34,943 bases of DNA. It comes from Rhodospirillales bacterium. Its GTDB lineage: Bacteria; Pseudomonadota; Alphaproteobacteria; Rhodospirillales; Magnetospirillaceae. Positions 3,926 to 32,464 of this stretch are shown piece by piece. Made by a program: the position numbers and the translations under genes. Each line of letters begins with the position of its first letter. The stretch's first letter is position 1. The stretch lies in assembly GCA_014379805.1 (NCBI GenBank), contig JACMLB010000298.1, positions 1-34,943 of the forward strand. Direction: 5' to 3'. The notes under the pieces were generated by a model. The model was not told the origin of the DNA. It saw nothing but the letters and a program-made list of their open reading frames with translations, and did not search any database.

Positions 3926-3962
3926 GCCCCCGCAGCTTCCCCCCCTGGCTGCGGGGGCTTTT
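3926..3962 (+). terminator. Strong hairpin with T-tract, terminator or leader attenuator
   Basis: An 11-base perfect stem (GCCCCCGCAGC at 3926-3936 with GCTGCGGGGGC at 3948-3958), an 11-base C-rich loop, then TTTT. An A-tract (AAAA at 3921-3924) on the other side also gives a T-tract on the minus strand, so it could work in both directions. No gene ends here on either strand. It lies 34 bases before the response regulator start. Confidence 0.7.
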
Positions 3963-3996
3963 CATGTGCGGTGTTGCAAGAGTAAGGTCCGAGCCC

Positions 3997-4674
3997 ATGC
4001 GTATTCTGCTCATCGAAGACGATCAAGAGGCGGCGGCCTATCTGGCCAAGGGCCTGCGCGAGGCCGGGCACAATGTGGACCACGCCGCCAATGGCACCGA
4101 TGGCCTGTTCCTGGCCACCTCGGAACGCTATGACGTGATGGTGGTGGACCGCATGCTGCCGGGGCTGGACGGGCTGACCATCATCCAAACGCTACGCACC
4201 GCCGGCAACGCCACGCCGGTGCTGATCCTGTCGGCTTTGGGCAAGGTGGATGACCGGGTGCGCGGGCTTAAGGCCGGCGGCGACGATTATCTGGTCAAGC
4301 CCTATGCCTTCGCCGAATTGATAGCCCGCATCGAGGCTCTGGGCCGGCGCGTCACCAGCAACCAGCCCGACACCAAATTGAAGGTCGAAGATTTGGAGAT
4401 GGACCTGCTGGCGCGCACCGTTGCCCGCGCCAGCCGAGATATCGATTTGCAGCCACGGGAATTCCGCCTGCTGGAATACCTCATGCGTCATGCCGGTCAG
4501 GTGGTGACCCGCACCATGCTGCTTGAAAACGTGTGGGAGTATCATTTCGACCCCCAGACCAATCTGATCGACGTGCATATCAGCCGCTTGCGCCAGAAGG
4601 TGGACAAAGACTTCGACCAGGCGCTGATCCATACCGTGCGCGGCGCAGGATATACCCTCCGTGCGGCCCGCTAG
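3997..4674 (+). CDS. OmpR/PhoB-family response regulator
   Basis: A 225-residue DNA-binding regulator. The receiver domain (1-115) has the acidic pair in IEDDQ, the phosphoacceptor Asp51 in VVDRMLPGLDG and Lys101 in YLVKPYAF. The winged-helix effector domain (about 130-223) has the family pattern PREFRLLEYLMRHAGQVVTR and the DVHISRLRQKVD recognition segment, ending HTVRGAGYTLR. The ATG at 3997 was chosen because the receiver starts there; the longer upstream frame is low-complexity and crosses a terminator-like hairpin. Its 3' end overlaps the next kinase gene by 14 bases, so the two form a cognate pair. The signal cannot be told from sequence. Confidence 0.93.
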   Translation: MRILLIEDDQEAAAYLAKGLREAGHNVDHAANGTDGLFLATSERYDVMVVDRMLPGLDGLTIIQTLRTAGNATPVLILSALGKVDDRVRGLKAGGDDYLVKPYAFAELIARIEALGRRVTSNQPDTKLKVEDLEMDLLARTVARASRDIDLQPREFRLLEYLMRHAGQVVTRTMLLENVWEYHFDPQTNLIDVHISRLRQKVDKDFDQALIHTVRGAGYTLRAAR

Positions 4675-6049
4675 CTTCCCCCTGCCCCCGTTGCTGCGCG
4701 CCACCACCTTCCGGCTGGCGCTGTCGTATCTGGGCATCTTCACCGTCTCGGCCATGGCGCTGCTGGCGCTGGTATCGTGGAGCACCTCGGTTTTCATCGA
4801 GTGGCAGGTTCAGGAAACCGTGGAGGCCGAGGCCACCGGCCTGTCCGAGCAATACCGCGAGCGCTCCATCCAGGGTCTGGCCGAAGTCATCGGCAACCGC
4901 GCCAATCAAGACCTTGAGCGCCGCGCGGTTTATCTGCTGCTGGCGCCTGACGGCACCCGCATCGCCGGCAATCTGTTCGGCTGGCCCAATGAACCGGGCG
5001 ACGCCAGCGGCTGGGTGCGCTTCACCATCGAACGCATGGACGACGCCCATTTCGCCACCGAAGTGCTGGCCCGCACCTATGAACTGCCCGAGAATTACAA
5101 GCTGCTGGTGGGCCGCTCCATGCACGACGCCCGGCGGGTCAAATCGGCCATCAACCGGGCGCTGGGCTGGGGTTTGGCGCTGACCGTTCTGCTGGGCATC
5201 ATCGGCGGCTATTTCACCAGCCGCCACATGCTGACCCGCGTGGAAGCCATGAGCCGCACGGCCCGGCGCATCGTCGGCGGCGACATGACCAGCCGCATGA
5301 AGCTGACCGGGACGCGGGACGAATTCGACCAGCTCGCCACCAGCTTCAACGAGATGATGGACGAAATCGAACGGCTGGTGGAAGGCATCCGCACGGTCAC
5401 CGACAACATCGCCCACGATCTGCGTACGCCACTGAACCGCCTGCGCTCGCGCATCGACGTGGCGTTGATGACCAAGACCGATACCGCCGATCTGCGCCGC
5501 ACCCTGGAAGAAACCGTTATCGAGGCCGACCGCCTGCTGGCGACCTTCAGCGCCCTGCTTGCCATCAGCAACGCCGAGTCAGGCCAACGCCTGCACAACT
5601 TCCAGCCGCTTAACCCGGCGCAACTGGCCCAGGACGTGGTCGAACTTTACGAACCCCTGGCCGAGGAAAAGGGCATCGCCATGGCCTGCCATGCGGACCC
5701 CGATCTATCGCTGCAAGGCGACCGGCATTTGATGTTCCAGGCCCTGGCGAACCTTGTGGACAACGCGGTCAAATACACCCCGCCGGGTGGCACCGTGGCT
5801 GTCACCGTGGCCGGCACGTCCTCGGGAATCGAGGTGACCGTGGCCGATTCCGGGCCGGGCATCCCTGCCGACTCCCGCGACAAGGTGCTGGACCGGTTCG
5901 TGCGGCTGGACTCCACCCGCTCTACTCCTGGAAACGGCCTGGGCCTGTCCCTGGTCAAGGCGGTGGCGCGGCTGCATGGCGCCAATCTGGTGCTGGACGA
6001 CAACGCGCCGGGGCTGTTGGTGCGCATGGTGTTTACGCGAGTGGCTTAG
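4661..6049 (+). CDS. Membrane HAMP sensor histidine kinase
   Basis: A 462-residue kinase, partner of the OmpR-type regulator just upstream. It has two membrane segments (about 17-40 and 165-187) enclosing a periplasmic sensor region of about 125 residues, then HAMP (about 188-240), HisKA with His252 in AHDLRTPLNRLRS, and a HATPase domain (N-box LVDNAVKYT, G1 DSGPGIP, G2 GNGLGLSL). The start is a GTG inside the end of the regulator gene; the next Met codon would fall inside the first membrane segment. The layout (short periplasmic domain, EnvZ/QseC-like order) suits detection of an envelope or solute signal, but I cannot name it. Its stop overlaps the stop of the convergent PEBP gene. Confidence 0.92.
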   Translation: MRPASFPLPPLLRATTFRLALSYLGIFTVSAMALLALVSWSTSVFIEWQVQETVEAEATGLSEQYRERSIQGLAEVIGNRANQDLERRAVYLLLAPDGTRIAGNLFGWPNEPGDASGWVRFTIERMDDAHFATEVLARTYELPENYKLLVGRSMHDARRVKSAINRALGWGLALTVLLGIIGGYFTSRHMLTRVEAMSRTARRIVGGDMTSRMKLTGTRDEFDQLATSFNEMMDEIERLVEGIRTVTDNIAHDLRTPLNRLRSRIDVALMTKTDTADLRRTLEETVIEADRLLATFSALLAISNAESGQRLHNFQPLNPAQLAQDVVELYEPLAEEKGIAMACHADPDLSLQGDRHLMFQALANLVDNAVKYTPPGGTVAVTVAGTSSGIEVTVADSGPGIPADSRDKVLDRFVRLDSTRSTPGNGLGLSLVKAVARLHGANLVLDDNAPGLLVRMVFTRVA

Positions 6050-6771
6050 GCCCGCGCATATTCCCCCATGATTTCCGCCTCGGCCAGCACATAGGGCCGC
6101 GCCGCTGCGACCACGTCCCGCACTGATGCCTCGGCGGGAACCGGTAGCCGGTCGGTGGACAGGGCGCACAGGCGGAAATGGTAGTGGTGGGTGCCGTGGC
6201 GCTGCGGTGGGCAAGGGCCGCCATAGCCGCGCTTGCCGAAATCGTTGATCCCTTGGTGCAGCGGGCCGCGGGCCGCGCCCTCTTCCAATTGATGGCGGTC
6301 GGGCGGGATGTCGTAGGCGGCCCAATGGTGGAAAGTGCCCTTGGGGGCGTCGGGGTCTTCGCAATAGACCAGGAAGCTGCGGGTATCGTCCGGTTCGCCC
6401 TGCCATTCCAGAGGCGGCGACATGTCCTCGCCCTCGCAGGTGTAGACCGGCGGAATGGTGTCGCCGGACTCGAAAGCGGGGGAATTCACCTGCAGGCGAT
6501 GGCGCGGGTATTGCTGTTCCTCGTCCTGGTCGGTCAGGCCGGGGAACGAGCCCTGATTTTCCACCGCCAGCAGGGGCTCCACCGGTTCGGGGTGATCCAC
6601 CTCTTCCCGCTCCGCCGCCGGGTTGGGCAAGGTCGGGGGTGGGCTCATCTGGATGGCTAGCTCGCTGCGCGCCATTTGCCAGTGATCCAGGGCACGGCCT
6701 TCTGGCCGGCCCTCGCGCTCCCAAATGTGATAGGCGCGCTCGCGGATCGTCTGCTCGGGAATTTCACCCAT
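6046..6771 (-). CDS. DUF2934-PEBP (YbhB/YbcL-like) fusion protein
   Basis: A 241-residue protein with two parts. Residues about 7-40 (TIRERAYHIWEREGRPEGRALDHW is the core, given in pieces: IRERAYHIWE and GRPEGRALDHW) match the short DUF2934 domain common in alphaproteobacteria. Residues about 90-235 are a YbhB/YbcL phosphatidylethanolamine-binding-protein fold, with CEDPDAPKGTFHHWAAYDIP and GKRGYGGPCPP followed by HGTHHYHF. No signal peptide is seen, so it is probably cytoplasmic. The start at 6771 is set by GAGGAGG 9 bases upstream; a longer frame would begin at a TTG lying inside that ribosome site. The ligand or partner is unknown. The DUF2934 and PEBP domains are joined by a Pro/Glu-rich linker. 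Confidence 0.85.
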   Translation of the reverse strand: MGEIPEQTIRERAYHIWEREGRPEGRALDHWQMARSELAIQMSPPPTLPNPAAEREEVDHPEPVEPLLAVENQGSFPGLTDQDEEQQYPRHRLQVNSPAFESGDTIPPVYTCEGEDMSPPLEWQGEPDDTRSFLVYCEDPDAPKGTFHHWAAYDIPPDRHQLEEGAARGPLHQGINDFGKRGYGGPCPPQRHGTHHYHFRLCALSTDRLPVPAEASVRDVVAAARPYVLAEAEIMGEYARA

Positions 6772-6827
6772 GGCGGCAGCCCTCCTCAACAGGAACTTGG
6801 CTGATCTGGCCTACCGCCCGGGCTCCG

Positions 6828-7070
6828 TCACCCCCCCTCTACCAATGCGTGACCATAGCCGGCAAGGGCCAGCACATTGGCCAGCGCCTGACGCCGGGCG
6901 TCCGGCGGCAAGCGCCGGGGCTCGGGGTGCTCTGGGTCAAAGAATAAAGGTTCGCCGCGACGTGGAAGCCGACCGAATTGGCGCTTGAACAGTACCCGCC
7001 GGTACTCAAGCACACCGATCAACTCCAACGTCATCGGCAGGGCCTTGGGCCTCTTGCCGCTGATTTTCAT
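6828..7070 (-). CDS. Small basic protein of unknown function
   Basis: An 80-residue protein beginning MKISGKRPKALPMTLELIGV and rich in Arg/Lys/Pro. I recognise no domain. The ATG at 7070 has GGGAGG 8 bases upstream, a better start than the GC-rich extension to 7121. Its coding look (acceptable codon use, convincing ribosome site, no competing frame) supports a real gene. It lies between the PEBP gene and the divergent kinase block and is read in the same direction as the PEBP gene, about 56 bases before it. Confidence 0.55.
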   Translation of the reverse strand: MKISGKRPKALPMTLELIGVLEYRRVLFKRQFGRLPRRGEPLFFDPEHPEPRRLPPDARRQALANVLALAGYGHALVEGG

Positions 7071-7237
7071 GTTGTTTTCCTCCCGATCCGGCGACTTTAT
7101 CCGAAGCAATCCCAACGCCACCAGTTAGCCCCATGGCCGATCCCCATGGCCGTTCGAGGTATATCCTTCGCTTGTTTGATTGCGTCCGCATGCCGTGCCG
7201 GGGGACAATGCCCCGTTGGGACAGAGGGAATGGCGGT

Positions 7238-9628
7238 ATGGCTGGTTGGGGGGTCGTCAGGCGGATCAAGGCGGGGGTGAACGCTGTTCGCGGCTGCACG
7301 ACGTCACACTGCGCCAGCCAGGAACGGCTGGCCCAATTGCTGTTGGCGGCGCCGGCGGTGGTTTATGCCGCCCGTTGGGACGCCGCCATGACGGTTACCT
7401 TCATCAGCCCCAACATCCGCGACATGACCGGCCATCGGCCCGAAGACTTCCTCGAAACCCCCGGCTTTTGGCACACGCATCTTCATCCCGATGACGTCGC
7501 CCACCTCGAAGCGGCAAGGCCCGTCTTTTTGGAACGCGGGCACGCCTCATGGAAATACCGCTTCCGTCATGCCGACGGCAGCTACCGCTGGACCCGTGAC
7601 GAGATCAAGCTGATCCGCGGCGCGGACGGCCAGCCCCTGGAAGTGGTGGGGGCGTGGCTGGATATCACCGAGCACCGTCAATCCGAAGAAGCTCTGGCCG
7701 CCAGCGAAGAACAGCTGCGCGCCACCGAACGTCTGCTGGCCGACGCTTTGGAAAGCAGCGACGACGCGTTCTCTCTGTTCGATTCCGAAGACCACCTGCT
7801 GCGCTTCAACAGCCGCTACCGCGACCTTTACCCCACCATCACCGAGATGATCCGTCCCGGCGTCACCTTTGCCGAATTGCTGCGGGCCAGTGCGCTCCGC
7901 GGCCAGTATGACGGCGTCTCTCCCGCCCAGGCCGAGGAATGGGTGCGCGACCGCCTGACCCGCCACGCCGCCGCCACCGGAGCGTTCGAGCAAAAACTAT
8001 CCGACGGACGCTGCCTGGAAATCGTCGAGCGCCGCACCGCCGATGGCGGCCGGGTCGCCATCCGCCGCGACGTCAGCCCACGCAAGCGCGTCGAGGAAGC
8101 CCTGCGCCGCGAACTGGCCTTCGAGCAAACCCTGATCGATGCCCTGCCCCTGCCGGTCTTCTTCAAGGGCTGCGACGGCCGCTACCTGGGCTGCAATACC
8201 AAATTCGCCGAAGCCCTGGGCCTGCCCATGGACAAGATCGTGGGCCGCACCCTGCAAGAGGTCATGCCGCCCGAGAAGGCTGAAGAATACGCCCGTGCCG
8301 ACGCGGAAATCCTGGCCAACCCCGGCGCCGTCCAAAGCTATGAAACCACCATGAAATGGGGCGACGGCAGCATCCGCCGGCTGAATGTGTTCAAGGGCAC
8401 CTTCCGTGGCGCCGACGGCACCGTGGCCGGCTTCATCGGCTCGCTGATCGACCTGACCCAGCAAAAGCGGGCCGAGGAGCAATTGGTTCAGACGGCCAAG
8501 CTGGCAACGCTGGGCCAAATCGCCTCGGAAGTGGCGCACGAGCTGAACCAGCCCTTGTCCATCATCCGCATGTCGGCGGAAAGCTGTCTGCAAACCTCGG
8601 ACAACGCCCCCCCCGCGCCCGATCAGATCGAGCGCAAGCTGTCCATCATCTGCGGCCAAGTGGCCCGCATGTCCGAGATGGTCAACCATTTGCGCTCGTT
8701 CAGCCGCACGGAAAGCGGCGAGAAGCGGGCGTTCTCCCTGGCCCAAGTGGTCCAATCGGCGGCCCATCTGCTGTCGCCCCATTTCCAATTGGACGCCATC
8801 ACTTTGGTGACCGATGTGGAGGCCGCCTGCCCCGAGGTTTGCGGCTATCCCAACCAGATCGAACAGGTGGTGCTGAACCTGCTGGCCAATGCCCGCGACG
8901 CCGTGCGCGCCCATTGCCCCACCGGCCAGGGCCGCGTGGAATTGCGCCTGAAGGCCGAGAACGGTTGGGCTCAGCTGATGATCATGGATAATGGCGGCGG
9001 CATTCCAGACCCCCTGTGGCAGACCGTGTTCGACCCCTTCTTCACCACCAAGGCCGATGGTGCCGGCACCGGATTGGGGCTGTCCATCAGCGCCAACATC
9101 GTCGCCGGCATGGCCGGCCATATCCAGGGCCGCAACCTGGGCGCCGGTGCGTGCTTTACCGTGTCGTTGCCGCTGCACCGTGCCACCGGCAATTCCCAAG
9201 ACCAGAGCGAGCCCCATCTGCCGCCCGCCATCTGCGCCCCCGCCCCGGTCCAGGGCGGTCCACGCGGCCGCATCCTGGTGGTGGACGACGAGGCCCTGGC
9301 GGTGGATTGCATCGCCGAATTCCTGCAAGGCCGTGGCTTCCAGGTGGTCACCGCCACCGGCCCCGGCCCGGCTTTGGATTTGGCGCGCGAATATCGCCTG
9401 GACATGGTCATCACCGACATGCGCATGCCCGGTATGGAAGGGGGGGCACTGCTGGAACGCCTGCGCAGCCGCTCGCCCTTGCTGCCCGCCGTGCTGATGA
9501 CCGGCGGCCCGGTGCCGGCCGGCCCGGCCATCCCCGGATCGGTTATCCTGCGCAAGCCGCTGGCCTTGAACCAATTGGCCTGCGAGGTCGACATGCTGCT
9601 GGCCGAACGCAAGGGGGCGTCATGCTGA
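7238..9628 (+). CDS. Triple-PAS hybrid histidine kinase with C-terminal receiver (kinase 1)
   Basis: A soluble kinase of about 796 residues with no membrane segment. In order: a PAS_3-type fold (about 30-150, ending VVGAWLDITEHR), a PAS_7-like fold (about 165-285, FSLFDSEDHLLRFNSRYRDLYP), a third PAS (about 290-415, LPVFFKGCDGRYLGCN), HisKA with His434 in AHELNQPLSIIRMS, HATPase (NLLANARDAV, DNGGGIPD, GTGLGLSI) and a receiver with Asp727 in ITDMRMPGMEG and Lys in LRKPLAL. The NQPL H-box places it with NtrB/DctB-like (HPK4) kinases. The start is uncertain: 7238 has AGGGA 8 bases upstream, while 7133 has no ribosome site. Its end overlaps kinase 2 by 7 bases. It is probably a cytoplasmic redox, gas or small-ligand sensor, by inference from PAS domains only. 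Confidence 0.88.
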   Translation: MAGWGVVRRIKAGVNAVRGCTTSHCASQERLAQLLLAAPAVVYAARWDAAMTVTFISPNIRDMTGHRPEDFLETPGFWHTHLHPDDVAHLEAARPVFLERGHASWKYRFRHADGSYRWTRDEIKLIRGADGQPLEVVGAWLDITEHRQSEEALAASEEQLRATERLLADALESSDDAFSLFDSEDHLLRFNSRYRDLYPTITEMIRPGVTFAELLRASALRGQYDGVSPAQAEEWVRDRLTRHAAATGAFEQKLSDGRCLEIVERRTADGGRVAIRRDVSPRKRVEEALRRELAFEQTLIDALPLPVFFKGCDGRYLGCNTKFAEALGLPMDKIVGRTLQEVMPPEKAEEYARADAEILANPGAVQSYETTMKWGDGSIRRLNVFKGTFRGADGTVAGFIGSLIDLTQQKRAEEQLVQTAKLATLGQIASEVAHELNQPLSIIRMSAESCLQTSDNAPPAPDQIERKLSIICGQVARMSEMVNHLRSFSRTESGEKRAFSLAQVVQSAAHLLSPHFQLDAITLVTDVEAACPEVCGYPNQIEQVVLNLLANARDAVRAHCPTGQGRVELRLKAENGWAQLMIMDNGGGIPDPLWQTVFDPFFTTKADGAGTGLGLSISANIVAGMAGHIQGRNLGAGACFTVSLPLHRATGNSQDQSEPHLPPAICAPAPVQGGPRGRILVVDDEALAVDCIAEFLQGRGFQVVTATGPGPALDLAREYRLDMVITDMRMPGMEGGALLERLRSRSPLLPAVLMTGGPVPAGPAIPGSVILRKPLALNQLACEVDMLLAERKGASC

Positions 9629-11529
9629 ACCGCCGCCGCCGCGTCGCCTTCCTGCTGATGACGGCGACGCTTGCGGTCACTGCGCTGGTGGCGAATGGAC
9701 AATGGGACCGTCACCTTCAGGAAGCCGCCGGGTATCGCGGCCACGAATTGCACGAGGTGCAGGAAAGCCTGTCCGCCCTGCACCGCGAGCTTGCCATGGT
9801 GAACCTGCTGATTGGCGGGGCCAATCAGGGGGCGGTGAACGAGTATTTGATGGCGCGCCGCCATGAATTCTCGCCGGTGCGCTGGCTGGGCTATGCGCCC
9901 GCTGCGGGCGAAGCACCGCGCATGCTGTTGGGCTCGGCGGTCATGGCCCAATTCGACCACCGCAATGACCCCGCTTTGACCGCCTTGCTGAGCCGCATGG
10001 CCGAAAGCAATCCGGCGGCCGGAATACCTGAGACCTATCGGGGCATTGCCTCGCTGGCCCTGGCCCTGTCGGCGCCGGGCGACGGCAAGGGTGCCGCTTT
10101 GGTGGCCTTGGTCGACATGGACGAGCTGCTGCGCGAGACCATGCTCGACATCGACCATCTGCCGCTGCGGTTGGAATTCACCCTGGACGGCACCACCCTG
10201 GGCCAATGGCCGCCGGGCAGCCGCCACGATGCCCATCGTTCGCACATCATCATGCCCCTGTCCGTGGGCACTGCCCGCTTCGCCGTGGCGTTCAGCTCTC
10301 CGCGCTGGACGGAAGCGCCATGGGCATTGCCACTGACCGTGCTGTTCGCCGGTCTCAGTTTGGTGGCAGCATGGTTGCTGGGTGGCCGCAAGCCCGCCGC
10401 CGTGGCGAAGGTCACCGTCCCGGCCTTTGCCGACCATACGAATGTGCGTGCCGCCCGCATGAGTCGGCTGTGGCAGGTGGGCGAGGTGACCGCCTCGCTG
10501 GGTCATGATTTCGGGCAGCCGCTCAACGTCATCCGCCTGACCGCCGAGGCGGCGCTGGACGCCCTGGATCACCACCGCGCCGACCCCGACCGCATGCGCC
10601 GCAGCCTGAATGCGGCGGTGGATCAAAGCCGGCGCATGCAGGCCATGATCGATGCCCTGCTGGCAGGCACCCGCCGCCCGCAGGACCCGCCCCAAACGGT
10701 GCAGCCGGTGGCCGTCATACGCCACGCCCTGTCATTGGCCCTGCCGCGTCTGCGGACCCAATCCATCCGCCTGATCTGGCATGCCGATCTTGCCACGCCC
10801 ATGGTCAGCGGTCATGGCGTGCGGCTGGAGATGGCGATCACCAATGTGCTGACCAATGCCGCCGATGCCCTGGCCGCCCGCATGCTGACTGGTCACACGG
10901 CGGAACCGGCGGTATTGCGGGTCGCCTGCCGAGAGGAAGCAGGCGACGCCCTGATCACGGTGGAGGATAACGGCCCCGGCCTCCCGCCCGACCTTCGCGC
11001 AGCCCTGGCGTTGCCCCAAGGCGGGACCGGCATCGGCCTGACCGTGGCCCTGGGCATCATCGCCGAAATGGGCGGCAGCGTGGAGTTCGAAGACGCCTCG
11101 CCCGGCACGCGCGTGACCATCCGCCTGCCGGCTTCAACAGGGGCGCGCTCGGTGCTGGTGGTGGATGACGAGGCCGAAGCTGCCGGGGAAATCGGCGATT
11201 ACCTTGCCGGCCAGGGGTGGCACGTGCGGATGGCCAGCGGCGGCAACGAGGCTGTGCGGCTATTTGACCAAGCGCCATGCCATGCGGTGGTTACCGATTT
11301 GAACATGGCCGATGGCGATGGCTGGCGGCTGATCGAGCATTTACATGCTCGCGACCCAGATCTGATTATTATCGCGGTCACCACCGCCCAAGGCGAAGAC
11401 GCCCGCCGCGCCGTCACCGCCGGCGCCGTCATGGTGCTGCGCAAACCGGTTGGGCTGGAGCAAATCGCGCAAGAGTTGGATGAACTGGTCGCCTATTATG
11501 GCTCACGGAAAAAGTCATTCCGCAAATAG
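9622..11529 (+). CDS. Membrane hybrid histidine kinase with periplasmic sensor (kinase 2)
   Basis: A 635-residue hybrid kinase. A membrane segment at about 8-26 and another at 234-254 enclose a periplasmic domain of about 205 residues that resembles a CHASE-type sensor (inferred from layout and the FSPVRWLGYAPA pattern). Then come HisKA with His295 in GHDFGQPLNVIRLTAE, a HATPase domain (NVLTNAADAL, DNGPGLPP, GGTGIGLTVALG) and a receiver with Asp559 in VTDLNMADGDG and Lys in VLRKPVGL. The H-box has Asp after the His where kinases 1 and 3 have Glu. The ATG at 9622 lies inside the end of kinase 1, so the two are translationally coupled and may act on the same output. The longer in-frame extension upstream of 9622 only mirrors kinase 1. 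Confidence 0.9.
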   Translation: MLNRRRRVAFLLMTATLAVTALVANGQWDRHLQEAAGYRGHELHEVQESLSALHRELAMVNLLIGGANQGAVNEYLMARRHEFSPVRWLGYAPAAGEAPRMLLGSAVMAQFDHRNDPALTALLSRMAESNPAAGIPETYRGIASLALALSAPGDGKGAALVALVDMDELLRETMLDIDHLPLRLEFTLDGTTLGQWPPGSRHDAHRSHIIMPLSVGTARFAVAFSSPRWTEAPWALPLTVLFAGLSLVAAWLLGGRKPAAVAKVTVPAFADHTNVRAARMSRLWQVGEVTASLGHDFGQPLNVIRLTAEAALDALDHHRADPDRMRRSLNAAVDQSRRMQAMIDALLAGTRRPQDPPQTVQPVAVIRHALSLALPRLRTQSIRLIWHADLATPMVSGHGVRLEMAITNVLTNAADALAARMLTGHTAEPAVLRVACREEAGDALITVEDNGPGLPPDLRAALALPQGGTGIGLTVALGIIAEMGGSVEFEDASPGTRVTIRLPASTGARSVLVVDDEAEAAGEIGDYLAGQGWHVRMASGGNEAVRLFDQAPCHAVVTDLNMADGDGWRLIEHLHARDPDLIIIAVTTAQGEDARRAVTAGAVMVLRKPVGLEQIAQELDELVAYYGSRKKSFRK

Positions 11530-11602
11530 CCTTCAGGCCGATCGGGACTTGAATTCGGCACCGGAACAACGCTACGAAAGATATAAGAAGGAGAGCCGGC
11601 GC

Positions 11603-12229
11603 ATGCGCATTATTCTTGCCGACGACCATGTGATGATCCGCGAAGGTTTACGGCCGTTCGTGGAACGCATAGCCGCCGACGCAATTGTCCAGGAAGCCGG
11701 CAGCCTTCCCGATGTTTTGGCGCTGTTGAAAGATGGACCGGCGGACCTTGTCATCCTCGACCTCAAGATGCCCGGCATGAACGGCTATCAGGGTCTGGTC
11801 ACCCTGCGTCAAATGTTTCCACAGATGCGGTGCGTCATGCTGTCGGCGGTGGCCGATCGCGACCATGTGCTTGAGGCCATCCGCCTTGGTGCCGACGGCT
11901 TCATCCCCAAGCATCTGTCGGGCGCCGCCATGGTGTCGGCGCTGCAATTGGTGCTGTCGGGCGAACGGTTCATCCCCGCCATGCTGATGGAACGCAGCCG
12001 CGACGCAGCCGAGGGCGATATCGGCGGCGATTTGATCAGCAAGCTGACGCCCCGTGAACGCGACATCCTGCGGCTGCTGCGCGAAGGTCTGCCCAACAAG
12101 GTCATCGCCAACCGTCTTGAGGTCAGCGAAGTGACGGTCAAGTCCCATCTTGGCAACGTCTTCCGCAAATTGGGCGTCCAAAACCGCCTTCAGGCAATGC
12201 GCCTAATGGTTGACAGCGAGCCGCTTTAA
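11603..12229 (+). CDS. NarL/LuxR-family response regulator (regulator 1)
   Basis: A 208-residue regulator: receiver 1-120 with Asp53 in ILDLKMPGMNG and Lys103 in FIPKHLSG, then a LuxR-type helix-turn-helix (about 146-205, LTPRERDILRLLREGLPNKVIANRL split around residue 165) with EVTVKSHLGNVFRKLGV as recognition helix region. AAGGAGAG precedes the ATG at 11603 by 8 bases, fixing the start. It lies 73 bases after kinase 2 and 87 before kinase 3. It closely resembles regulator 2 (PGMNG, LVLSGE, PNKVIA, FRKL all shared), so the two arose by duplication. It likely takes phosphate from one of the neighbouring kinases; direct transfer or transfer through the kinase receivers are both possible. Confidence 0.92.
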   Translation: MRIILADDHVMIREGLRPFVERIAADAIVQEAGSLPDVLALLKDGPADLVILDLKMPGMNGYQGLVTLRQMFPQMRCVMLSAVADRDHVLEAIRLGADGFIPKHLSGAAMVSALQLVLSGERFIPAMLMERSRDAAEGDIGGDLISKLTPRERDILRLLREGLPNKVIANRLEVSEVTVKSHLGNVFRKLGVQNRLQAMRLMVDSEPL

Positions 12230-12316
12230 TCTCCGTTTACAACATACCTTCCGCCGTCTTCCACCCCCTTGGATCTAGTGTCATAATCGCTTTGGCTCAG
12301 GTAGGGGGGATTGTTC

Positions 12317-14626
12317 ATGGCCGGAAAGGGCGCGAAGCCATTGCGGGCGGTTCTGGCGGCCATTGCAGCCTTTTTGCGCCCCGGGCGGGCGGCATCATCC
12401 CAGTTGTCCTGGCGCACCCTTGCCCATGAACACATCATCGAAGGCTATGCCCTTTGGGATGCCGAGGACCGGCTGATCGAGCAGGCGGGCTTCCTCAACG
12501 ATTACCTGCCGCAATTGGCCGAATGGCAGCGCCCCACTGGCCGGCAAATCATTACCGCCCTGGTGGAATCCGGTCAGGTCACCCCGTTGCCCGGCAGCGA
12601 CCGCGAACAAACCATCGAGACCATGTGCCGGCTGCGCGGGAAAATCCCCGGTCTGCGGTCCTTCCGCATGGCTGACGGCCATGTCTTCCTGGCCCGCACC
12701 CTGGATTTGGGCCAGTCGTGCCACGCCACGGTTTTTTCCAACATCACCGAATTCAACAAGACACAGCAGACTTATCGGGTGCACGAAGACACCTTCCGCG
12801 ACGTCTTTGAATCCGCGCCCGCCATGGTGGTGCTGCTGGATGCCGCCCAGCACCCGCTGGCGGTGAACCGGGCTTTCCGGACCACCTTCGGCCACCCGCT
12901 GGAGCATCTGGCCGAACTGGGGTGGGACGGCATCCTGCACCCCGACGAAAACGCCGCGCCGTGGAGCCCCGGGACGCGGCGCTTTGTCCGCGCGGACGGC
13001 GCGGTGGTGCGCGGCGTGGTGCGAGTAACCCCGGTGCACAACGCCGATGGCCGCAACCTGGTCACCATCGAAGATGTGACCGCGCGCTGGGACGCGGAGG
13101 AACGTGTCCGCCTTCAGGCTTTGTTGCTGGAGCAGATCGGCAGCGCGGTGCTGGCGGTGGATCGCCATGGCCGCGTCGTCTACGGCAACCCCGCCGCCCA
13201 GACCCTGTTCCAGTGGAGCGACGCCGTGCTGCCCGGCACCCCGGTAGAGCGCCTGCTGGGCAGCGAAATCCGCGCGGCCATGGACTCGGATGTTACCGAG
13301 ATCGAACTTGAGGGCGCCACCTGGACCGGCAGCCATTTCCCCGTCCAAATCGGTATCGCGCGCATGGAGGACGGTGCCGGCAACCCCGCCGGTGCGGCCC
13401 TGGTGGTCAGCGACCTTACCCCGCGCCGCGCCCTTGATCTTCAGCTCATGCACTCGGCCCGTCTTGCCACCCTGGGCGAAATGGCGGCCAGCATTGCCCA
13501 CGAATTCAACCAGTGCCTCCACGTGATCCGCCTGGCGTCCGAAGCCTTGCGCATGGATCTGGGCGACGACGCCCTTGACCCCACCCGCGTGGCGAAACGG
13601 TGCAACAACATCCTAAGCCAAGTGGACCGCCTGACCGAAATGGTCGGCCACATGCGGACCATCAGCCGGCGCGACAACGCGGGAAAACGCCCGTTCCGCC
13701 CGCAAGGCGCGCTGGATACGGCGGTTCGCATGATGGAACCGCTGTTGAAGGTCGAGGGCATCACCCTGGTGCAACAGGGCCGCCTGGGCCACCGCAGCAC
13801 CATCGGCCATCAGGTCCGGCTGGAGCAGGTGTTGCTGAACCTGCTGAACAACGCCCGTGATTCCATCCGCGAACGCTTCGACCGCGACGGCAATACGGGC
13901 GGCACCGTCACCATCGTCTGCACCGCCGAGAACAACCGGCTGCGCATCAAGCTGAGCGATGACGGCACCGGCGTCCCCGACAATGCCGGGCATCATATTT
14001 TCGAGCCGTTCTTCACCACCAAGGACGAAGGCCGCGGCTGTGGCCTGGGCCTGTCCATCAGCCGGGGCATCTGCAGCGAGATGGGCGGCAGCCTGACCTT
14101 CCGCAATCTGGAGCGCGGCGCCGAATTCACCATCGACCTGCCTGGGTTGGAACCGATCGCGGCAGAGGAAACCCCGCTTCCTCCCGCCCCCATGGCCGAA
14201 CTGCATTGGACCGACGCCCAGGACGACGACGACTTCACCGAGGAACGCCGCCTGCTGCTGGTGGATGACGAAGCGCTGTCGGTCATGATGGTGTCCGAAT
14301 ATCTGGAGCGTCAGGGCTATGTGGTGGACACCGCCTATGACGGGCTGGAAGCCCTGGAAAAATGCCGGACCCACGTCTATCACGCCGTCATTACAGACAT
14401 CCGCATGCCGCGCATGGACGGCCATGAACTGATCGACCAATTGGACGAGCTGCAGCCCGGAACGCCTGTCATCGTGGTGACGGGGCATCTGAAAGAAAGC
14501 CACGTCACCGAGTTGGGCGCCAACGTGGTGGCTATGATGTCCAAGCCATTTCAGCTACAGGATTTACGAGACCATTTATCCCGCCTCGACCACCACAGTG
14601 AATCACGAGAGAAAGAGGGAGTCTGA
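12317..14626 (+). CDS. PAS-rich hybrid histidine kinase with C-terminal receiver (kinase 3)
   Basis: A 769-residue kinase without clear membrane segments. A PAS_7-like region (about 40-150, EGYALWDAEDRLIEQ), two further PAS folds (about 160-265 and 270-375), HisKA with His395 in AHEFNQCLHVIRLASE, HATPase (NLLNNARDSI, DDGTGVPD, GCGLGLSI) and a receiver with Asp694 in ITDIRMPRMDG and Lys in SKPFQL. In the H-box the usual Pro of NQPL is replaced by Cys. The start at 12317 (ATG) follows AGGGGGGA by 6 bases; a TTG two codons earlier would lie too close to it. Regulator 2 begins 2 bases after the stop, so they are coupled. The kinase core is a paralogue of kinases 1 and 2. Confidence 0.9.
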   Translation: MAGKGAKPLRAVLAAIAAFLRPGRAASSQLSWRTLAHEHIIEGYALWDAEDRLIEQAGFLNDYLPQLAEWQRPTGRQIITALVESGQVTPLPGSDREQTIETMCRLRGKIPGLRSFRMADGHVFLARTLDLGQSCHATVFSNITEFNKTQQTYRVHEDTFRDVFESAPAMVVLLDAAQHPLAVNRAFRTTFGHPLEHLAELGWDGILHPDENAAPWSPGTRRFVRADGAVVRGVVRVTPVHNADGRNLVTIEDVTARWDAEERVRLQALLLEQIGSAVLAVDRHGRVVYGNPAAQTLFQWSDAVLPGTPVERLLGSEIRAAMDSDVTEIELEGATWTGSHFPVQIGIARMEDGAGNPAGAALVVSDLTPRRALDLQLMHSARLATLGEMAASIAHEFNQCLHVIRLASEALRMDLGDDALDPTRVAKRCNNILSQVDRLTEMVGHMRTISRRDNAGKRPFRPQGALDTAVRMMEPLLKVEGITLVQQGRLGHRSTIGHQVRLEQVLLNLLNNARDSIRERFDRDGNTGGTVTIVCTAENNRLRIKLSDDGTGVPDNAGHHIFEPFFTTKDEGRGCGLGLSISRGICSEMGGSLTFRNLERGAEFTIDLPGLEPIAAEETPLPPAPMAELHWTDAQDDDDFTEERRLLLVDDEALSVMMVSEYLERQGYVVDTAYDGLEALEKCRTHVYHAVITDIRMPRMDGHELIDQLDELQPGTPVIVVTGHLKESHVTELGANVVAMMSKPFQLQDLRDHLSRLDHHSESREKEGV

Positions 14627-14628
14627 CC

Positions 14629-15303
14629 ATGGAGATCCTGCTCGCCGACGACCATGCCATGGTGCGTGACGGGTTGGTGCCCTTCCTCGAGCGCCTCGAG
14701 CCCGGCACGACCGTGCTGGAAGCCTCGACCTTCGAGGAAGCGCTGGCAGCCGCCCGCGCCACCGGCAATCTGGGCATGGCCATTCTCGATCTTTACATGC
14801 CGGGCATGAACGGGCTGGGCGGCCTTGCCACCTTGCGCCGCGACTTCCCCGACCTTCCCATCGTCATTCTGTCGGGCTCCACCAAGCCCGAGGACGCCTT
14901 CCAGGCTATCGAGGCCGGCGCCTGCGGCTTCGTGCCCAAGACCATGCGGGGCGAGACCATCATCGGCGTGCTGCGCCTGGTGCTGTCGGGCGAGAAGTAC
15001 ATCCCGCCCTTCCTGTTCGAGCACCGCGACAGCATCGGCACCACTGCGACAGCCGCCGCCGCCAGCATTCCCCCCGGTTCACCGCTGGCAACGCTGACCC
15101 CGCGCGAACGCGACATCCTGGACATGATCGTGGACGGCGCCCCCAACAAGGTGATCGCCCGCGCCCTGACGCTGCAAGAGGTGACCGTGAAGGCCCATCT
15201 GCGCAACATGTTCCGCAAGTTGAACGTCGCCAACCGAACCGAAGCGGCCCGTGTCGCCCTGGTTGCCGGTATGACCGGGCGCAAGGCGTTGGAGAAGGTT
15301 TAG
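14629..15303 (+). CDS. NarL/LuxR-family response regulator (regulator 2)
   Basis: A 224-residue regulator: receiver about 1-120 with Asp54 in ILDLYMPGMNG and Lys104 in FVPKTMRG; an Ala/Pro-rich linker of about 25 residues; LuxR helix-turn-helix (about 155-212) with LTPRERDILDMIVDG and EVTVKAHLRNMFRKLNVANR. A ribosome site (GAGGGAG) sits inside the end of kinase 3, and the gene starts 2 bases after that stop, so kinase 3 is its likely partner. The close likeness to regulator 1 suggests overlapping or competing targets. It is the last gene of the signalling series before the AT-rich insert. Confidence 0.93.
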   Translation: MEILLADDHAMVRDGLVPFLERLEPGTTVLEASTFEEALAAARATGNLGMAILDLYMPGMNGLGGLATLRRDFPDLPIVILSGSTKPEDAFQAIEAGACGFVPKTMRGETIIGVLRLVLSGEKYIPPFLFEHRDSIGTTATAAAASIPPGSPLATLTPRERDILDMIVDGAPNKVIARALTLQEVTVKAHLRNMFRKLNVANRTEAARVALVAGMTGRKALEKV

Positions 15304-15388: not shown

Positions 15389-15877
15389 ATGATGGAGTTT
15401 ATGTTATCTGCGAGGTTCTTGCTGGAAAATGCTAATGTCGATTGGGGAGATTTGGTGTGGGCCTATGAAAGACAGCTCATTAGCTGGAAAGATTTAGTTG
15501 AGATCGCACAGCAAAAAGTTGGTCTCAGGAAAGCTAGCCTCCTTGAAGTTAAGCTTTCAAACGTTGGGAAGGACAATTCTTGGAGCGCTTTCGATATCGC
15601 TTCGAAATTAATTCGCGGGCCAATTTCAGAGGAGTTTATCAAAAAAAAATGGCTTTACCTGTGTCTCCTTTATGTTTATAGGCTAAATGTTAGCAACGGT
15701 GAAAAGCTTTCATTTGTTGAAAGCATATATGCTGAGTTTGATTATCCAGATGAGATCTCCGGATTTATTAGATATATTCCGCCAGCCCCTGATGATGCAT
15801 ACGATCCAAGCCTGCATTCCATTGAAGAAAATGAGAGGCATTTATTTAAAAAGATGACGAATTTCTTAAATTCGTAA
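15389..15877 (+). CDS. DUF2247-family protein in AT-rich DNA, possible orphan immunity protein
   Basis: A 162-residue acidic, cytoplasmic-looking protein. The pattern matches what I recall of DUF2247: an N-terminal VDWGDLVWAYERQLISWKD, a central KKKWLYLCLLYVYRL, and a C-terminal FDYPDEISGFIRYIPP followed by YDPSLHSIEEN. The family has no known biochemical role; similar small proteins often sit among toxin-immunity genes, but no toxin is present here. The DNA is far more AT-rich than all neighbours and uses A/T-ending codons (AAA, TTA, GAT) rarely seen around it, which indicates recent transfer. Inverted repeats bracket the gene. GGAAAG lies 11 bases before the first ATG; a second ATG follows directly. 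Confidence 0.75.
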   Translation: MMEFMLSARFLLENANVDWGDLVWAYERQLISWKDLVEIAQQKVGLRKASLLEVKLSNVGKDNSWSAFDIASKLIRGPISEEFIKKKWLYLCLLYVYRLNVSNGEKLSFVESIYAEFDYPDEISGFIRYIPPAPDDAYDPSLHSIEENERHLFKKMTNFLNS

Positions 15878-16138: not shown

Positions 16139-17977
16139 CTAATCCGCCCACTCCAACTCGACCGGGGCGTTTTCGTCCAAGGGGAAACGCACTTCCACTT
16201 GAGTGCCGGTGGCGCGATGCACCGCCAAGGTGCCGTGGATTTGTTTGACCAGAACGCCGACCATGCGCAATCCAAGGGACTCACCGTCGAAGTCCATTTG
16301 GCGCGTGGCATCGGTGCCGTCATCGGCCACCACCAGCGAGCCCTCATTCTCGCCAATTGCGGCCATATGGATGGTGAGCCGGCCACCTTGTTCGGTGAAG
16401 GCGTGCTTGAGGGCATTGCTGACCAATTCGTGGACGATCAGGGCCAGCGGCTCCGCCTTGTCCACCGGCAAAGGCAGGCTGCCCGCGCCGATATCCAAGC
16501 GGACCCAATCCTCGCGCACGCCGTACATGCGGAACAGATCGACGCATAGGGCGCGAACATATTCCACGAAATCCACCGAGGCGACGCTTTCCTGCGTGTA
16601 AAGCAGTTCGTGCACCTTGGCCAAGGACAGGATGCGGCCGCAGGCTTCCTCGAACTTGCGGCGCAACGCCGGGTCGGTCATGCGCCAGCCCTGCATCTGC
16701 AGGATGGACGAGACGATCTGAAGGTTGTTCTTCACCCGATGATGGACCTCCATCATCAGCACGCGATTGTCGTTGAGCGACGCCTTGAGCTCTTCCTCCA
16801 TGGCCTTGCGGGCGGTGATATCGCGGATACAGGCCACCACCGCCTCGCCCTCGGCCACCGCCGATACCTGCAATTCCAGGCAGATGCCGCCCCAGCGGGC
16901 GGAGCGCACGACTTCCTTGGTCAGCGGACGGGCATGCACAAGGACGTCACGGCTCAACCGTTCCAGCGGCACCATGATGTCCTCGGGCAAGCCACCTTCG
17001 CGCCAGGTGCGCGCGGCCAATTCCCGGCTGGTACGGCCAAAGAACTGCTCGCCTGCGCGGCTAAGGAAGCGGATACGCCCGGATGCGTCGAACATGATGA
17101 CCGGGTCCACGGTGGCGTCCAACACCGCGTCCAGGGTGGTGGCGTGGCGCGACACTTCATCGGACAGGGCCTTTTCGCGGGCCATGGCACCGAATATCAA
17201 GGATTGCGGCCGGCGCAGGCCGCAATCGACTACCGCCTTTAGGAACAACCAGGCGCTGACGATTTTGAGCCCATGGCCGATGAAATTCGCCACTCCATAA
17301 AGGTCGGAATAGCCCGAAAATGCCAGTTCGGTCGCGATCTTGGCCATGACACATCGGACCAGCAGGGTATAAATCTGCGGATCGAAATCCTTAGCGCTAC
17401 GGCGCAGGCGCACCAGCACGACCAGGAACAGGCCAGCCAACGCCCATTCGAACCCCATCTTGAACGGGGTGACGCCCTCGCCTTCGACAAAGGTTCGCGG
17501 CCAAAAATCGGCGAAGACGGACGCCATCAAGACCGCAGTAACCAGCGAAAGCGCGGCGATGACCACCGGGACCGAGTAGCGGCGCTGGGATGACCACACC
17601 GCTACCAGCAGGCTGATGGCCTCGATCAGGCGGGCCGACAGCCATAATTGGGTGGACAGATTGCCGCCGTGATTGTCGAAAATCATCAAGCCCTTGTAGC
17701 CAAGGGTATGAATGGTATCGATGCCGCCGACGAACAGGGCGCTCAGGCCCAGCAGCAGCAGGTAGTTGCGGCCGATCCAATCGCGCGAATACCACGTGAC
17801 CACGCAGGCGGCGATGCCGACCACCACCGAGAACATCTCGGCCAGGGTGTGGAACAGCAGGAAATTATTGGCCCAGATGACGCACAGTACCACGACCAAC
17901 AGGCTGAAACCGGCCACCGCGCCCCAGGAACCTGCTCCTGACGGAAGTCCCCGTAATTTCAACCGTCCGTAGTCCAC
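16139..17977 (-). CDS. MASE3-PAS-HisKA_2 membrane histidine kinase (kinase 4)
   Basis: A 612-residue kinase. The N-terminal about 255 residues form a multi-pass membrane sensor with the MASE3 pattern (FHTLAEMFSVVVGI, GGIDTIHTLGYKG, NLSTQLWLSARLIEA). A PAS domain follows (about 280-390, VDPVIMFDASGRIRF, ending CIRDITARK), then HisKA_2 with EVHHRVKNNLQIVSS (His412/413) and a HATPase (VHELVSNALKHAF). The ATPase G1 box is DDGTDAT rather than the usual DxGxG, and the G2 region SLGLRMVGVLV is normal for HisKA_2 kinases. The start at 17977 has no strong ribosome site. The regulator gene at 18086-18715 lies just upstream in the same direction and is the likely partner. MASE3 ligands are not known to me. 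Confidence 0.88.
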   Translation of the reverse strand: MDYGRLKLRGLPSGAGSWGAVAGFSLLVVVLCVIWANNFLLFHTLAEMFSVVVGIAACVVTWYSRDWIGRNYLLLLGLSALFVGGIDTIHTLGYKGLMIFDNHGGNLSTQLWLSARLIEAISLLVAVWSSQRRYSVPVVIAALSLVTAVLMASVFADFWPRTFVEGEGVTPFKMGFEWALAGLFLVVLVRLRRSAKDFDPQIYTLLVRCVMAKIATELAFSGYSDLYGVANFIGHGLKIVSAWLFLKAVVDCGLRRPQSLIFGAMAREKALSDEVSRHATTLDAVLDATVDPVIMFDASGRIRFLSRAGEQFFGRTSRELAARTWREGGLPEDIMVPLERLSRDVLVHARPLTKEVVRSARWGGICLELQVSAVAEGEAVVACIRDITARKAMEEELKASLNDNRVLMMEVHHRVKNNLQIVSSILQMQGWRMTDPALRRKFEEACGRILSLAKVHELLYTQESVASVDFVEYVRALCVDLFRMYGVREDWVRLDIGAGSLPLPVDKAEPLALIVHELVSNALKHAFTEQGGRLTIHMAAIGENEGSLVVADDGTDATRQMDFDGESLGLRMVGVLVKQIHGTLAVHRATGTQVEVRFPLDENAPVELEWAD

Positions 17978-18085
17978 CGATTGCCCTTATGCCCGACGCC
18001 ACCAAGCATCGGCGACGTCACGGTAATATCAGGGCCGGCGCCACAGTGCGAGCCCACCTTAGAACTACCCAATCGTTCGAAAGAA

Positions 18086-18715
18086 CTACTCGATGAGTCC
18101 GCGGCGGATGGCGTAGGTTGCCAGATCGGCCGAGTTATGCAGATCAAGCTTTTGCATGATCTTGGTGCGATGGGTCTCCACCGTCTTGATGGCGATGGAC
18201 AAGGTGTCGGCGATCTCGCGGTTTTTCAACCCCTGGGCGATCAGCCGCAGGACCTCGCGCTCGCGGGCGGTCAGCGCCACGTTCGAGGTATCGGCGCCGT
18301 CCAGGAACTCACGCACCTGCTCTTGATTGAGCCCCGGACCAAGGTACTGCTTGCCGGCGCGCACCGAAGTGATGGCGGCCATCAGCTCGTCATGGCCCAG
18401 CTTCTTCAAGGCATAGCCATCCGCTCCGGCGGCCAATGCCTCGGCCACGCGGCGCTCGCAATTGGCGACGGTCAGGATCAGCACGCGGGTCTGGGGAACG
18501 GCCCGCTTGACGCGGCGGGTGGCCTCGACCCCGTCCAGCACCGGCATGGACAGATCCATCAGCACGATGTCGGGCTTAATCGCGACGGCCATCTCGACGG
18601 CGACAGCACCGTCCTCGGCTTCGCCGACGATCTCCACATCATCGGACTTCAACAGGGCGGCGAGCCCCTGGCGCACGAGTTGCTGGTCCTCGGCGATCAG
18701 GATACGAATGGGCAC
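18086..18715 (-). CDS. NarL/FixJ-family response regulator (regulator 3)
   Basis: A 209-residue regulator: receiver (1-122) with Asp54 in VLMDLSMPVLDG and Lys104 in YALKKLGH, linker, then LuxR helix-turn-helix (about 147-205, LTAREREVLRLIAQGLKNRE and KTVETHRTKIMQKL). It belongs to the mainstream NarL branch and is not close to regulators 1 and 2. I chose the GTG at 18715 because AAGGAGG lies 8 bases upstream and the receiver fold begins right there; an ATG at 18769 would add 18 residues without a ribosome site. The gene precedes kinase 4 by about 108 bases. The region 18716-18901 between it and the divergent NifX-like gene holds both promoters. Confidence 0.9.
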   Translation of the reverse strand: MPIRILIAEDQQLVRQGLAALLKSDDVEIVGEAEDGAVAVEMAVAIKPDIVLMDLSMPVLDGVEATRRVKRAVPQTRVLILTVANCERRVAEALAAGADGYALKKLGHDELMAAITSVRAGKQYLGPGLNQEQVREFLDGADTSNVALTAREREVLRLIAQGLKNREIADTLSIAIKTVETHRTKIMQKLDLHNSADLATYAIRRGLIE

Positions 18716-18901
18716 GCGAACGTCCTCCTTTGAAGTCTTAACCATCGTTCGGATAGAGACCGCGCGCACAATGCCCTAAATCCGCACGGGAATCGAGAGC
18801 CGACGCCTGCGTGTGGCGTAGAGAAAACACTCCCCCCTTGCCCCCGGCACAGGATTGCGTGTTTCATGGGCACAAGATGATATCTGGGGAGATTTTGGGC
18901 A

Positions 18902-31661: not shown

Positions 31662-31670
31662 TGGTTGTCG

Positions 31671-32368: not shown

Positions 32369-32464
32369 CGGACACCTCGGGCGTTGATCGAGGGCATTAT
32401 CAGAGCGGTGAGGATTCGAAGGCAAGCGCAATGTAGTGAGATCACTACTTTTGTTGGGGTGGGT

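What the first reader, a model, noticed from the sequence alone, without database searches (positions are those of the whole stretch)
7238..15303. Array of three paralogous hybrid kinases and two paralogous LuxR-type regulators
Seen: kinases 1-3 share the core H(E/D)xxQxLxxIR(L/M)xxE, similar ATPase and C-terminal receivers, but have different sensors (three PAS; periplasmic membrane; PAS_7 plus two PAS). Regulators 1 and 2 share long segments. Overlaps of 7 bases and a 2-base gap imply coupling. Inference: several inputs feed into two similar outputs, with receivers on the kinases acting as phosphate sinks or switches. No HPt domain is visible in the window, so the route of phosphate is an open question.
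Basis: partly seen in the sequence, partly recalled or inferred. Interest (0 to 1): 0.62.

Follow-up and report, generated by a model that had tools for sequence, protein, structure and literature searches.

The report
Histidine kinase shrunk to one domain
A cluster of three bacterial sensor kinases and two gene regulators is an ordinary signalling array here, but in related species the third kinase has shrunk to a stub as small as 65 amino acids that keeps only the phosphate-carrying histidine part, a natural example of a kinase apparently turning into a simple phosphate-relay protein.

Summary
In detail: K1 (7238-9628), K2 (9622-11529), R1 (11603-12229), K3 (12317-14626) and R2 (14629-15303) are FixL-like hybrid kinases and NarL/FixJ-type regulators in one array. 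The reading "several inputs into two similar outputs" is only partly supported: in trees each gene is an old lineage, K2-like kinases lie beside R1 in other genera, and the K3 slot stays beside R2, so K2-R1 and K3-R2 look like ancestral pairs with K1 added.

The new point comes from 13 orthologous R2 loci. The K3 slot is a full kinase in 4, a phosphoacceptor (DHp) domain plus receiver without ATPase in 5, a 65-aa DHp alone in 3, empty in 1. The phosphoacceptor histidine is kept in 8 of 8 reduced forms; the 65-aa ORFs evolve under purifying selection. In all six genomes with K1 and a reduced K3, K1 and K2 are one protein and K2's receiver is dead; K1's motifs are intact in 10 of 10.

Likely: K3's DHp is R2's phosphodonor; where reduced, it must be phosphorylated in trans, most simply by K1, working like ChpT or Spo0B. 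Stand-alone HisKA proteins are a known class; the evolutionary series is the variant. Nothing biochemical was tested.

The parts
7238..9628 (+). K1: soluble hybrid kinase, PAS_3-PAS_7-PAS_4-HisKA-HATPase-REC; the only one of the three with all examined catalytic motifs intact in every genome that has it (10 of 10)
   Evidence: start supported by ortholog N-termini
8495..9172 (+). K1 DHp + ATPase core; phosphoacceptor His codon 8537-8539
9622..11529 (+). K2: membrane hybrid kinase, CHASE/dCache-like periplasmic sensor, HisKA (His codon 10504-10506), HATPase without F-box, REC; overlaps K1 by 7 bases; its lineage is associated with R1
11603..12229 (+). R1: NarL/FixJ-type response regulator (REC + GerE)
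12230..12316 (+). R1-K3 gap with a -10-like CATAAT box at 12282-12287, seen as CATA(A/C/G)T in the same gap of the 7 genomes printed; possible separate promoter for K3-R2
   Evidence: by eye, no statistics
12317..14626 (+). K3: soluble hybrid kinase, PAS domains-HisKA-HATPase-REC; orthologs elsewhere reduced to DHp-REC or DHp only
13454..14143 (+). K3 DHp + ATPase core; His codon 13499-13501. The DHp half is the part kept in all 8 reduced orthologs
14629..15303 (+). R2: NarL/FixJ-type response regulator, 2 bases after K3; the gap is 2-10 bases in the 12 loci that have a K3 slot

Best explanation
The array is two ancestral kinase-regulator pairs, K2-R1 and K3-R2, of the FixL/FixJ kind, preceded by a third hybrid kinase K1. 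In the window K3 is a complete kinase: it should autophosphorylate on the histidine of its DHp domain and pass the phosphoryl group directly to R2, with its C-terminal receiver as brake or sink, so no HPt is needed. In sister lineages only the DHp hairpin of K3 (with or without the receiver) has been kept next to R2. That stub has no ATPase domain, so it must be phosphorylated in trans, most simply by K1, either from K1's receiver (His-Asp-His-Asp relay) or by K1's ATPase domain. K3's DHp then works as a ChpT/Spo0B-like histidine phosphotransferase for R2. K2 may be on the same road for R1: its ATP lid has lost the F-box, it is fused to K1 in six genomes, and there its receiver has lost the phosphoacceptor. 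Shown by sequence: domain make-up, lineages, loss of domains, invariance of the histidine, purifying selection. Inferred: every phosphotransfer step, its direction, and the direction of evolution (full to reduced).
For: K3-slot states in 13 orthologous R2 loci: full kinase 4 (window, L023, L024, L165), DHp-REC 5 (L026, L027, L028, L130, L131), DHp only 3 (L029, L030, L032/L160), none 1 (L025). Phosphoacceptor His and H+4 Gln kept in 8 of 8 reduced forms, always as H-D-A-N-Q. H+7, a position in the kinase-regulator contact region (recalled), is His in 11 of 11 K3-slot proteins aligned, Ser in 10 of 10 K1 and Asn in 10 of 10 K2. dN/dS of the three DHp-only pairs: 0.081/0.51, 0.182/0.70, 0.178/0.57; DHp part of L130-L131 0.042/0.54; Fisher p 3e-6, 4e-4, 1e-3, 6e-9 with rounded site counts. 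AlphaFold2: helical hairpin, residues 4-29 and 35-57, mean pLDDT 89.4. K1 motifs intact 10 of 10; K2 F-box 0 of 10; K2 receiver Asp lost in 6 of 6 fusions. K1-K2 fusion in all 6 genomes that have K1 and a reduced K3. Lineage pairing K2-R1, K3-R2. Precedents: ChpT's DHp hairpin is residues 20-83 and ChpT does not autophosphorylate (PMC3433190, passages); DHp and ATPase of EnvZ work on separate chains (PMC3591291, passages).
Against: No biochemistry. G022 and G030 have DHp-REC + R2 but no K1, no R1 and no K2 ortholog, so K1 cannot be the donor there; in G030 (L026) the receiver has also lost its acidic residues. K2 keeps the N-box Asn and G1 in 10 of 10 and both G2 glycines in 8 of 10, and kinases without an F-box exist (recalled), so K2 is not secured as a pseudokinase. 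The eight reduced forms may stem from one event, so counts are not independent. dN/dS between the DHp-only and DHp-REC groups reaches about 0.4 (L160-L130, L160-L131). DHp-only is seen only in records titled MAG. Genuine HPt proteins exist in all 13 genus genomes and could serve the receivers.
Confidence: 0.55

Rival explanations
1. Convergent wiring, the first reader's view: all three kinases phosphorylate both regulators directly, and the three receivers are sinks or switches.
For: Cores and regulators belong to one subfamily (33-49% identity) and lie in one array with conserved order; K1-K2 overlap.
Against: K2-R1 and K3-R2 lineages travel as pairs; H+7 differs strictly between the three DHp lineages; a possible separate promoter precedes K3.
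Confidence: 0.2
2. The DHp stub is not a donor but a dedicated phosphatase or titrating partner of R2 (or a heterodimer subunit of K1/K2): R2 is phosphorylated by another kinase directly and the stub switches it off.
For: CheA3, which lacks its own ATPase, is both donor and phosphatase (PMC3591291, passages); PhyT is both inhibitor and phosphotransferase (PMC5898713, passages). DHp-REC persists without K1 in G022 and G030.
Against: The residue at H+4 is Gln in all stubs, not the N/T of the phosphatase motif HE/DxxN/T quoted in PMC3591291; but Gln does not exclude phosphatase activity. The phosphoacceptor His itself is invariant.
Confidence: 0.2
3. The reduced K3 forms are decaying remnants kept only as a leader that couples translation to R2.
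For: 2-10 base gap to R2 in 12 of 12 loci with a K3 slot; stepwise loss of domains.
Against: Purifying selection and an invariant phosphoacceptor in 8 of 8; open frames in 8 genomes (frame lengths 66 to 274 aa, no stops inside).
Confidence: 0.05

Closest known systems
FixL-FixJ and hybrid FixL (hFixL-FxkR) systems
   Same: PAS-sensing HisKA kinase with HExxQ H-box (FixL-core chimeras are among the best solved-structure matches of K3) and, for FixL, a NarL/FixJ-type regulator; hFixL is a FixL variant working with FxkR (PMC7888657, passages); that hFixL carries a receiver is recalled
   Different: Three kinases and two regulators in one array; no curated NCBIfam cut-off for a named kinase or regulator was reached in the rows shown; [quoted passage not shown] signal unknown
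ChpT / Spo0B dimeric histidine phosphotransferases (pseudo-histidine kinases)
   Same: DHp helical hairpin with a phosphoacceptor His, kinase-like, no autokinase activity (ChpT; hairpin residues 20-83, PMC3433190, passages); relay CckA-ChpT-CtrA (PMC9981736, passages)
   Different: ChpT keeps a degenerate ATPase domain; the stubs here have none. The donor here is unknown
PhyT-type phosphotransferases
   Same: Kinase-derived alphaproteobacterial phosphotransferase with degenerate ATPase and a dual inhibitor/donor role (PMC5898713, passages)
   Different: HRxxN motif, membrane-anchored, partner PhyR is a sigma-factor mimic
Stand-alone HisKA proteins and split histidine kinases
   Same: 1556 of 42417 HisKA proteins in SMART lacked HATPase; CheA3/CheA4 work as a split kinase (PMC3591291, passages). 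An Azospirillum survey classes stand-alone HisKA proteins as phosphotransfer proteins and counts one, in A. brasilense CBG497 (PMC4618731, passages). Hik36/Hik43 (PMC7656254, passages)
   Different: The split kinases characterised in these papers are CheA-type; here the bare HisKA hairpin, below Pfam's cut-off, sits in the slot of a full hybrid kinase of sister species

Membership tests
FixL-like (HisKA, HExxQ H-box) hybrid histidine kinase | HisKA + HATPase_c + C-terminal Response_reg above Pfam cut-offs | tested here: met
   K1, K2 and K3 in the window
FixL-like (HisKA, HExxQ H-box) hybrid histidine kinase | N, G1, F and G2 boxes of the ATPase domain | tested here: inconclusive
   all present in 10 of 10 K1 and 3 of 3 K3 in the table (L165 not in it); F-box absent in 10 of 10 K2
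FixL-like (HisKA, HExxQ H-box) hybrid histidine kinase | Direct phosphotransfer to a NarL/FixJ-type regulator | not testable with these tools
   needs purified proteins
NarL/FixJ (LuxR-type) response regulator | Response_reg followed by GerE HTH above cut-off | tested here: met
   R1 and R2; best solved-structure match of R2 is NarL
HPt domain (PF01627) | Match to the Hpt profile | tested here: not met
   6 reduced proteins scanned, no Hpt match at E <= 0.05; the three 65-aa proteins match HisKA at 21.1, 20.3 and 18.7 bits against a cut-off of 26.9, L028's at 17.7, L026 and L027 not
ChpT/Spo0B-type histidine phosphotransferase | Helical hairpin carrying a phosphoacceptor His | tested here: met
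   (sequence and predicted monomer)
ChpT/Spo0B-type histidine phosphotransferase | Degenerate ATPase-like C-terminal domain | tested here: not met
   no such domain in the 65-233 aa stubs; so not filed as a member, only as working alike
[quoted passage not shown]
   only a single chain was modelled
Split histidine kinase | DHp without ATPase on one chain | tested here: met
   8 of 13 loci; 6 of these 8 scanned with Pfam
Split histidine kinase | A partner ATPase chain that phosphorylates it in trans | not testable with these tools
   K1 or the K1-K2 fusion is a candidate in 6 of the 8; none known in G022 and G030

The most novel reading that the evidence does not exclude
The locus catches the birth of a kinase-derived phosphorelay. 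Three autonomous hybrid kinases collapse, within one genus, into one fused kinase (K1-K2) plus a free 65-residue DHp protein. K2's and K3's DHp domains become the histidine phosphotransferases of R1 and R2, and the 65-aa form would be among the smallest natural histidine phosphotransferases, invisible to standard annotation.
Probability: 0.35. Interest if true: 0.75.

Novelty: new variant of a known kind. Interest (0 to 1): 0.5.

Why it matters
How histidine phosphotransferases such as Spo0B and ChpT arise from kinases is usually inferred from end products. Here full, half-reduced and fully reduced forms of one kinase sit in the same chromosomal slot of related species, next to the same regulator. 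One DHp-REC form lies in G021, whose single contig is 4,365,796 bases long, the length given for the M. gryphiswaldense MSR-1 genome in PMC4754748 (passage); if that inference is right, the test can be done in a laboratory strain. It also warns that bare DHp proteins can score below the Pfam cut-off and match no NCBIfam model (one tested), so regulators without an obvious kinase may have hidden partners next door.

Tried and rejected
A recent tandem duplication as origin of the array was rejected: each kinase and regulator has its own clade across species. Rfam found no RNA in the window at gathering thresholds. Solved-structure search with the 65-aa protein gave only five designed proteins, best E 0.0039. 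Foldseek on the hairpin model is not significant by E-value (best 0.21), as expected for two helices, although chains of the kinase HK853 (6rh8, 2c2a, 4jav) rank first, third and fifth. Wider occurrence: the DHp profile matches 57 of 297 genomes sampled from the order at E <= 1e-7; matches over 90 bits are in 12 genomes, all in the window's genus; the other rows are under 50 bits and in frames of 384 aa or more, so this stub family looks genus-restricted at that sensitivity.

Whether the fusion of K1 and K2 caused the reduction of K3 was left open: G022 and G030 have the reduced form without K1 and K2. The tree that includes the slot's own DHp and REC columns puts the 8 reduced forms on one side of a branch at 97/97, R2 alone at 73/67; direction (full to reduced) is inferred from complete outgroup kinases. 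For the kinase tree 10 of 67 domain matches were dropped before building, leaving 57 rows; both trees carry long-branch warnings and use selected loci, not all those fetched. The K2 sensor model varies between the five predictions (mean pLDDT 78.2 down to 46.9).

Literature (PMC open library only; subscription papers not searchable): no paper; some searches gave lists. Passages were read of PMC3591291, PMC9981736, PMC5898713, PMC7888657, PMC4754748, PMC7656254, PMC3433190, PMC12471899 and PMC4618731; the others were seen as listings only. None of what I saw describes this locus; stand-alone HisKA proteins as a class are in print (PMC3591291, PMC4618731).
Full report
WHAT IS THERE. The window is bases 1-34943 of contig C427 of a 439-contig, 79%-complete assembly whose nearest named relatives are Magnetospirillum. 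From 7238 to 15303 it carries, all on the + strand, K1 (796 aa), K2 (635 aa), R1 (208 aa), K3 (769 aa) and R2 (224 aa). Pfam gives PAS_3/PAS_7/PAS_4-HisKA-HATPase_c-Response_reg for K1, HisKA-HATPase_c-Response_reg for K2, PAS-HisKA-HATPase_c-Response_reg for K3, and Response_reg-GerE for both regulators. K2 has two hydrophobic segments around a sensor whose model (mean pLDDT 78, four sequences) aligns best with CHASE and dCache domains (AHK4 Z 14.0, rmsd 3.2, 193 residues; PcrK Z 12.6; many dCache rows at 11-12).

NOT A LOCAL DUPLICATION. In a tree of 57 kinase cores (10 of 67 matches dropped beforehand) K1 (10 rows), K2 (10) and K3 (4) each form one group against the others (100/92, 98/82, 100/99). 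K2's nearest outside relatives are kinases directly upstream of R1 orthologs in other genera (L162, L163, L164). K2 and K3 group at 91/81; K1 lies in a polytomy with, among others, hybrid kinases that sit beside R2-like regulators, one of them on contig C1 of the same genome. The tree carries long-branch warnings. In a tree of 63 regulators R1 (16 rows, 100/98) and R2 (13 rows, 99/100) are separate. R2's best own-genome match is the C1 regulator, not R1.

PAIRING. R1 occurs without an R2 ortholog in G029 and G017 (loci L159, L161), and beside a K2-like kinase in G032, G014 and G015. R2 with a K3-slot protein occurs in G022 and G030 without K1, R1 or a K2 ortholog (the best K2 matches there, 37% and 36%, are at the level of the C1-type kinases). 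G028 has R1, K3 and R2 but no K1 and no K2 ortholog. The simplest reading is two old pairs, K2-R1 and K3-R2, with K1 as a third partner.

THE K3 SLOT. Thirteen orthologous R2 loci were examined: those of 12 of the 13 genomes of the genus (G029 has none) and of G010. The slot before R2 is a full kinase in the window, L023, L024 and L165 (the last with broken frames that also affect neighbouring genes); DHp plus receiver without ATPase in L026, L027, L028, L130 and L131; a 65-aa DHp in L029, L030 and L032/L160; and absent in L025. Examples: L029 6810-7007, L030 9799-9996, L032 10129-10326. Each slot gene ends 2-10 bases before R2. The phosphoacceptor His is present in 8 of 8 reduced forms, in the shared context F-[VI]-H-D-A-N-Q-[CS]-L-H-[VI]-I-R. 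At H+7 the K3 slot has His in 11 of 11 aligned (and in L165), K1 Ser in 10 of 10, K2 Asn in 10 of 10; H+8, H+11 and H+12 overlap between lineages. That H+7 lies in the regulator-contact region is recalled, not tested. The receivers of L027, L028, L130 and L131 keep the examined residues, that of L026 has lost them.

REAL GENES. Between L029 and L030 there are 19 synonymous and 11 nonsynonymous differences (dS 0.51, dN 0.081); L029-L160 0.70 and 0.182; L030-L160 0.57 and 0.178; the DHp part of L130-L131 0.54 and 0.042; the highest ratio between groups is about 0.4 (L160 against L130 and L131). Fisher tests with rounded site counts gave p 3e-6, 4e-4, 1e-3 and 6e-9, and 2e-6 for L028-L131. HisKA is matched only below the cut-off in the 65-aa proteins (21.1, 20.3, 18.7 against 26.9 bits), and the one tested matches no NCBIfam model, so such ORFs would probably be annotated as hypothetical. 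The predicted structure is a hairpin. ChpT's DHp hairpin spans residues 20-83 with His33 (PMC3433190, passages), so the stub is about the size of that hairpin alone.

PARTNERS. K1 and K2 are one polypeptide of 1126-1142 aa in L028, L130, L131, L029, L030 and L160, exactly the six genomes that have K1 and a reduced K3. K1's His, N, G1, F and G2 residues and receiver Asp and Lys are intact in 10 of 10, with Ser for Thr in the receiver of the six fusions; K2's His is kept in 10 of 10, its F-box in 0 of 10, its receiver phosphoacceptor in 4 of 10, lost in all six fusions. The K2-like kinase of G032 keeps the F-box and has no receiver. Reduced slots fall on one side of a branch (97/97 with DHp, REC and R2; 73/67 with R2 alone), so this may be one event followed by loss of the receiver in one sublineage (DHp-only group 100/100).

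MECHANISM. In the window nothing demands an HPt: a FixL-type kinase can phosphorylate a NarL/FixJ-type regulator directly (established for FixL-FixJ, recalled), and K3's best solved-structure matches include LvrB and FixL-core chains. In the reduced genomes the stub has no ATPase, so it needs a donor. K1 is the only partner with all examined motifs. Two routes are open: K1 His - K1 Asp - stub His - R2 Asp, as in CckA-ChpT-CtrA (PMC9981736, passages), or phosphorylation of the stub by K1's ATPase domain in trans, as for CheA3/CheA4 and split EnvZ (PMC3591291, passages). G022 and G030 show that another donor must exist there, or that the stub acts as phosphatase or sequestering partner of R2, as PhyT partly does (PMC5898713, passages). 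Hpt matches number 11 to 28 per genome in the genus, so a route through true HPt proteins is not excluded.

VERDICT. The window array itself is ordinary, and the same genome seems to have another kinase-regulator array on contig C396. Stand-alone HisKA proteins are a recognised class (PMC3591291; PMC4618731). The comparative series, one slot going from full hybrid kinase to DHp-REC to bare DHp beside the same regulator while its neighbours fuse, is a new variant of that known kind; the searches listed under Tried and rejected showed no description of it.

Noticed in passing
window 15389-15877: A DUF2247 gene (Pfam E 1.2e-29) with GC 0.39, against 0.60-0.67 for the neighbours measured; no match in the printed tblastn rows of the relatives: probably a recent import.
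   Followed up: partly
window 30132-34306: Arm-DNA-binding/integrase-type protein (30132-31661; integrase domain just under its cut-off) and a MobA/VirD2-type relaxase with TraI-like middle domain (32465-34306): looks like part of an integrated mobile element.
   Followed up: no
window 16139-18769 (- strand): MASE3-PAS-HisKA_2 kinase and a LuxR-type regulator, about 100 bases apart, conserved downstream of R2 in L023, L024 and L165. In L028, L130 and L131 only a weak kinase match (28-30%) remains, and in L029 and L030 no kinase match was printed while the regulator stays.
   Followed up: partly
own genome contig C396, about 3864-7331: Kinase and regulator matches in the order kinase-regulator-kinase-regulator: probably a second array of the same general type.
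   Followed up: no
window 12230-12316: The R1-K3 gap carries a CATA(A/C/G)T box in the 7 genomes printed, so K3-R2 may have its own promoter.
   Followed up: partly
L160 (G024) R1 and L165 (G028) several genes: Broken reading frames; in G028 several neighbouring genes are affected, which suggests assembly indels rather than gene decay.
   Followed up: partly
L161 3902-7750 (- strand): In G017 a 1282-aa ORF lies between the PEBP gene and R1, where K1-K2 lie in the window; not identified.
   Followed up: no
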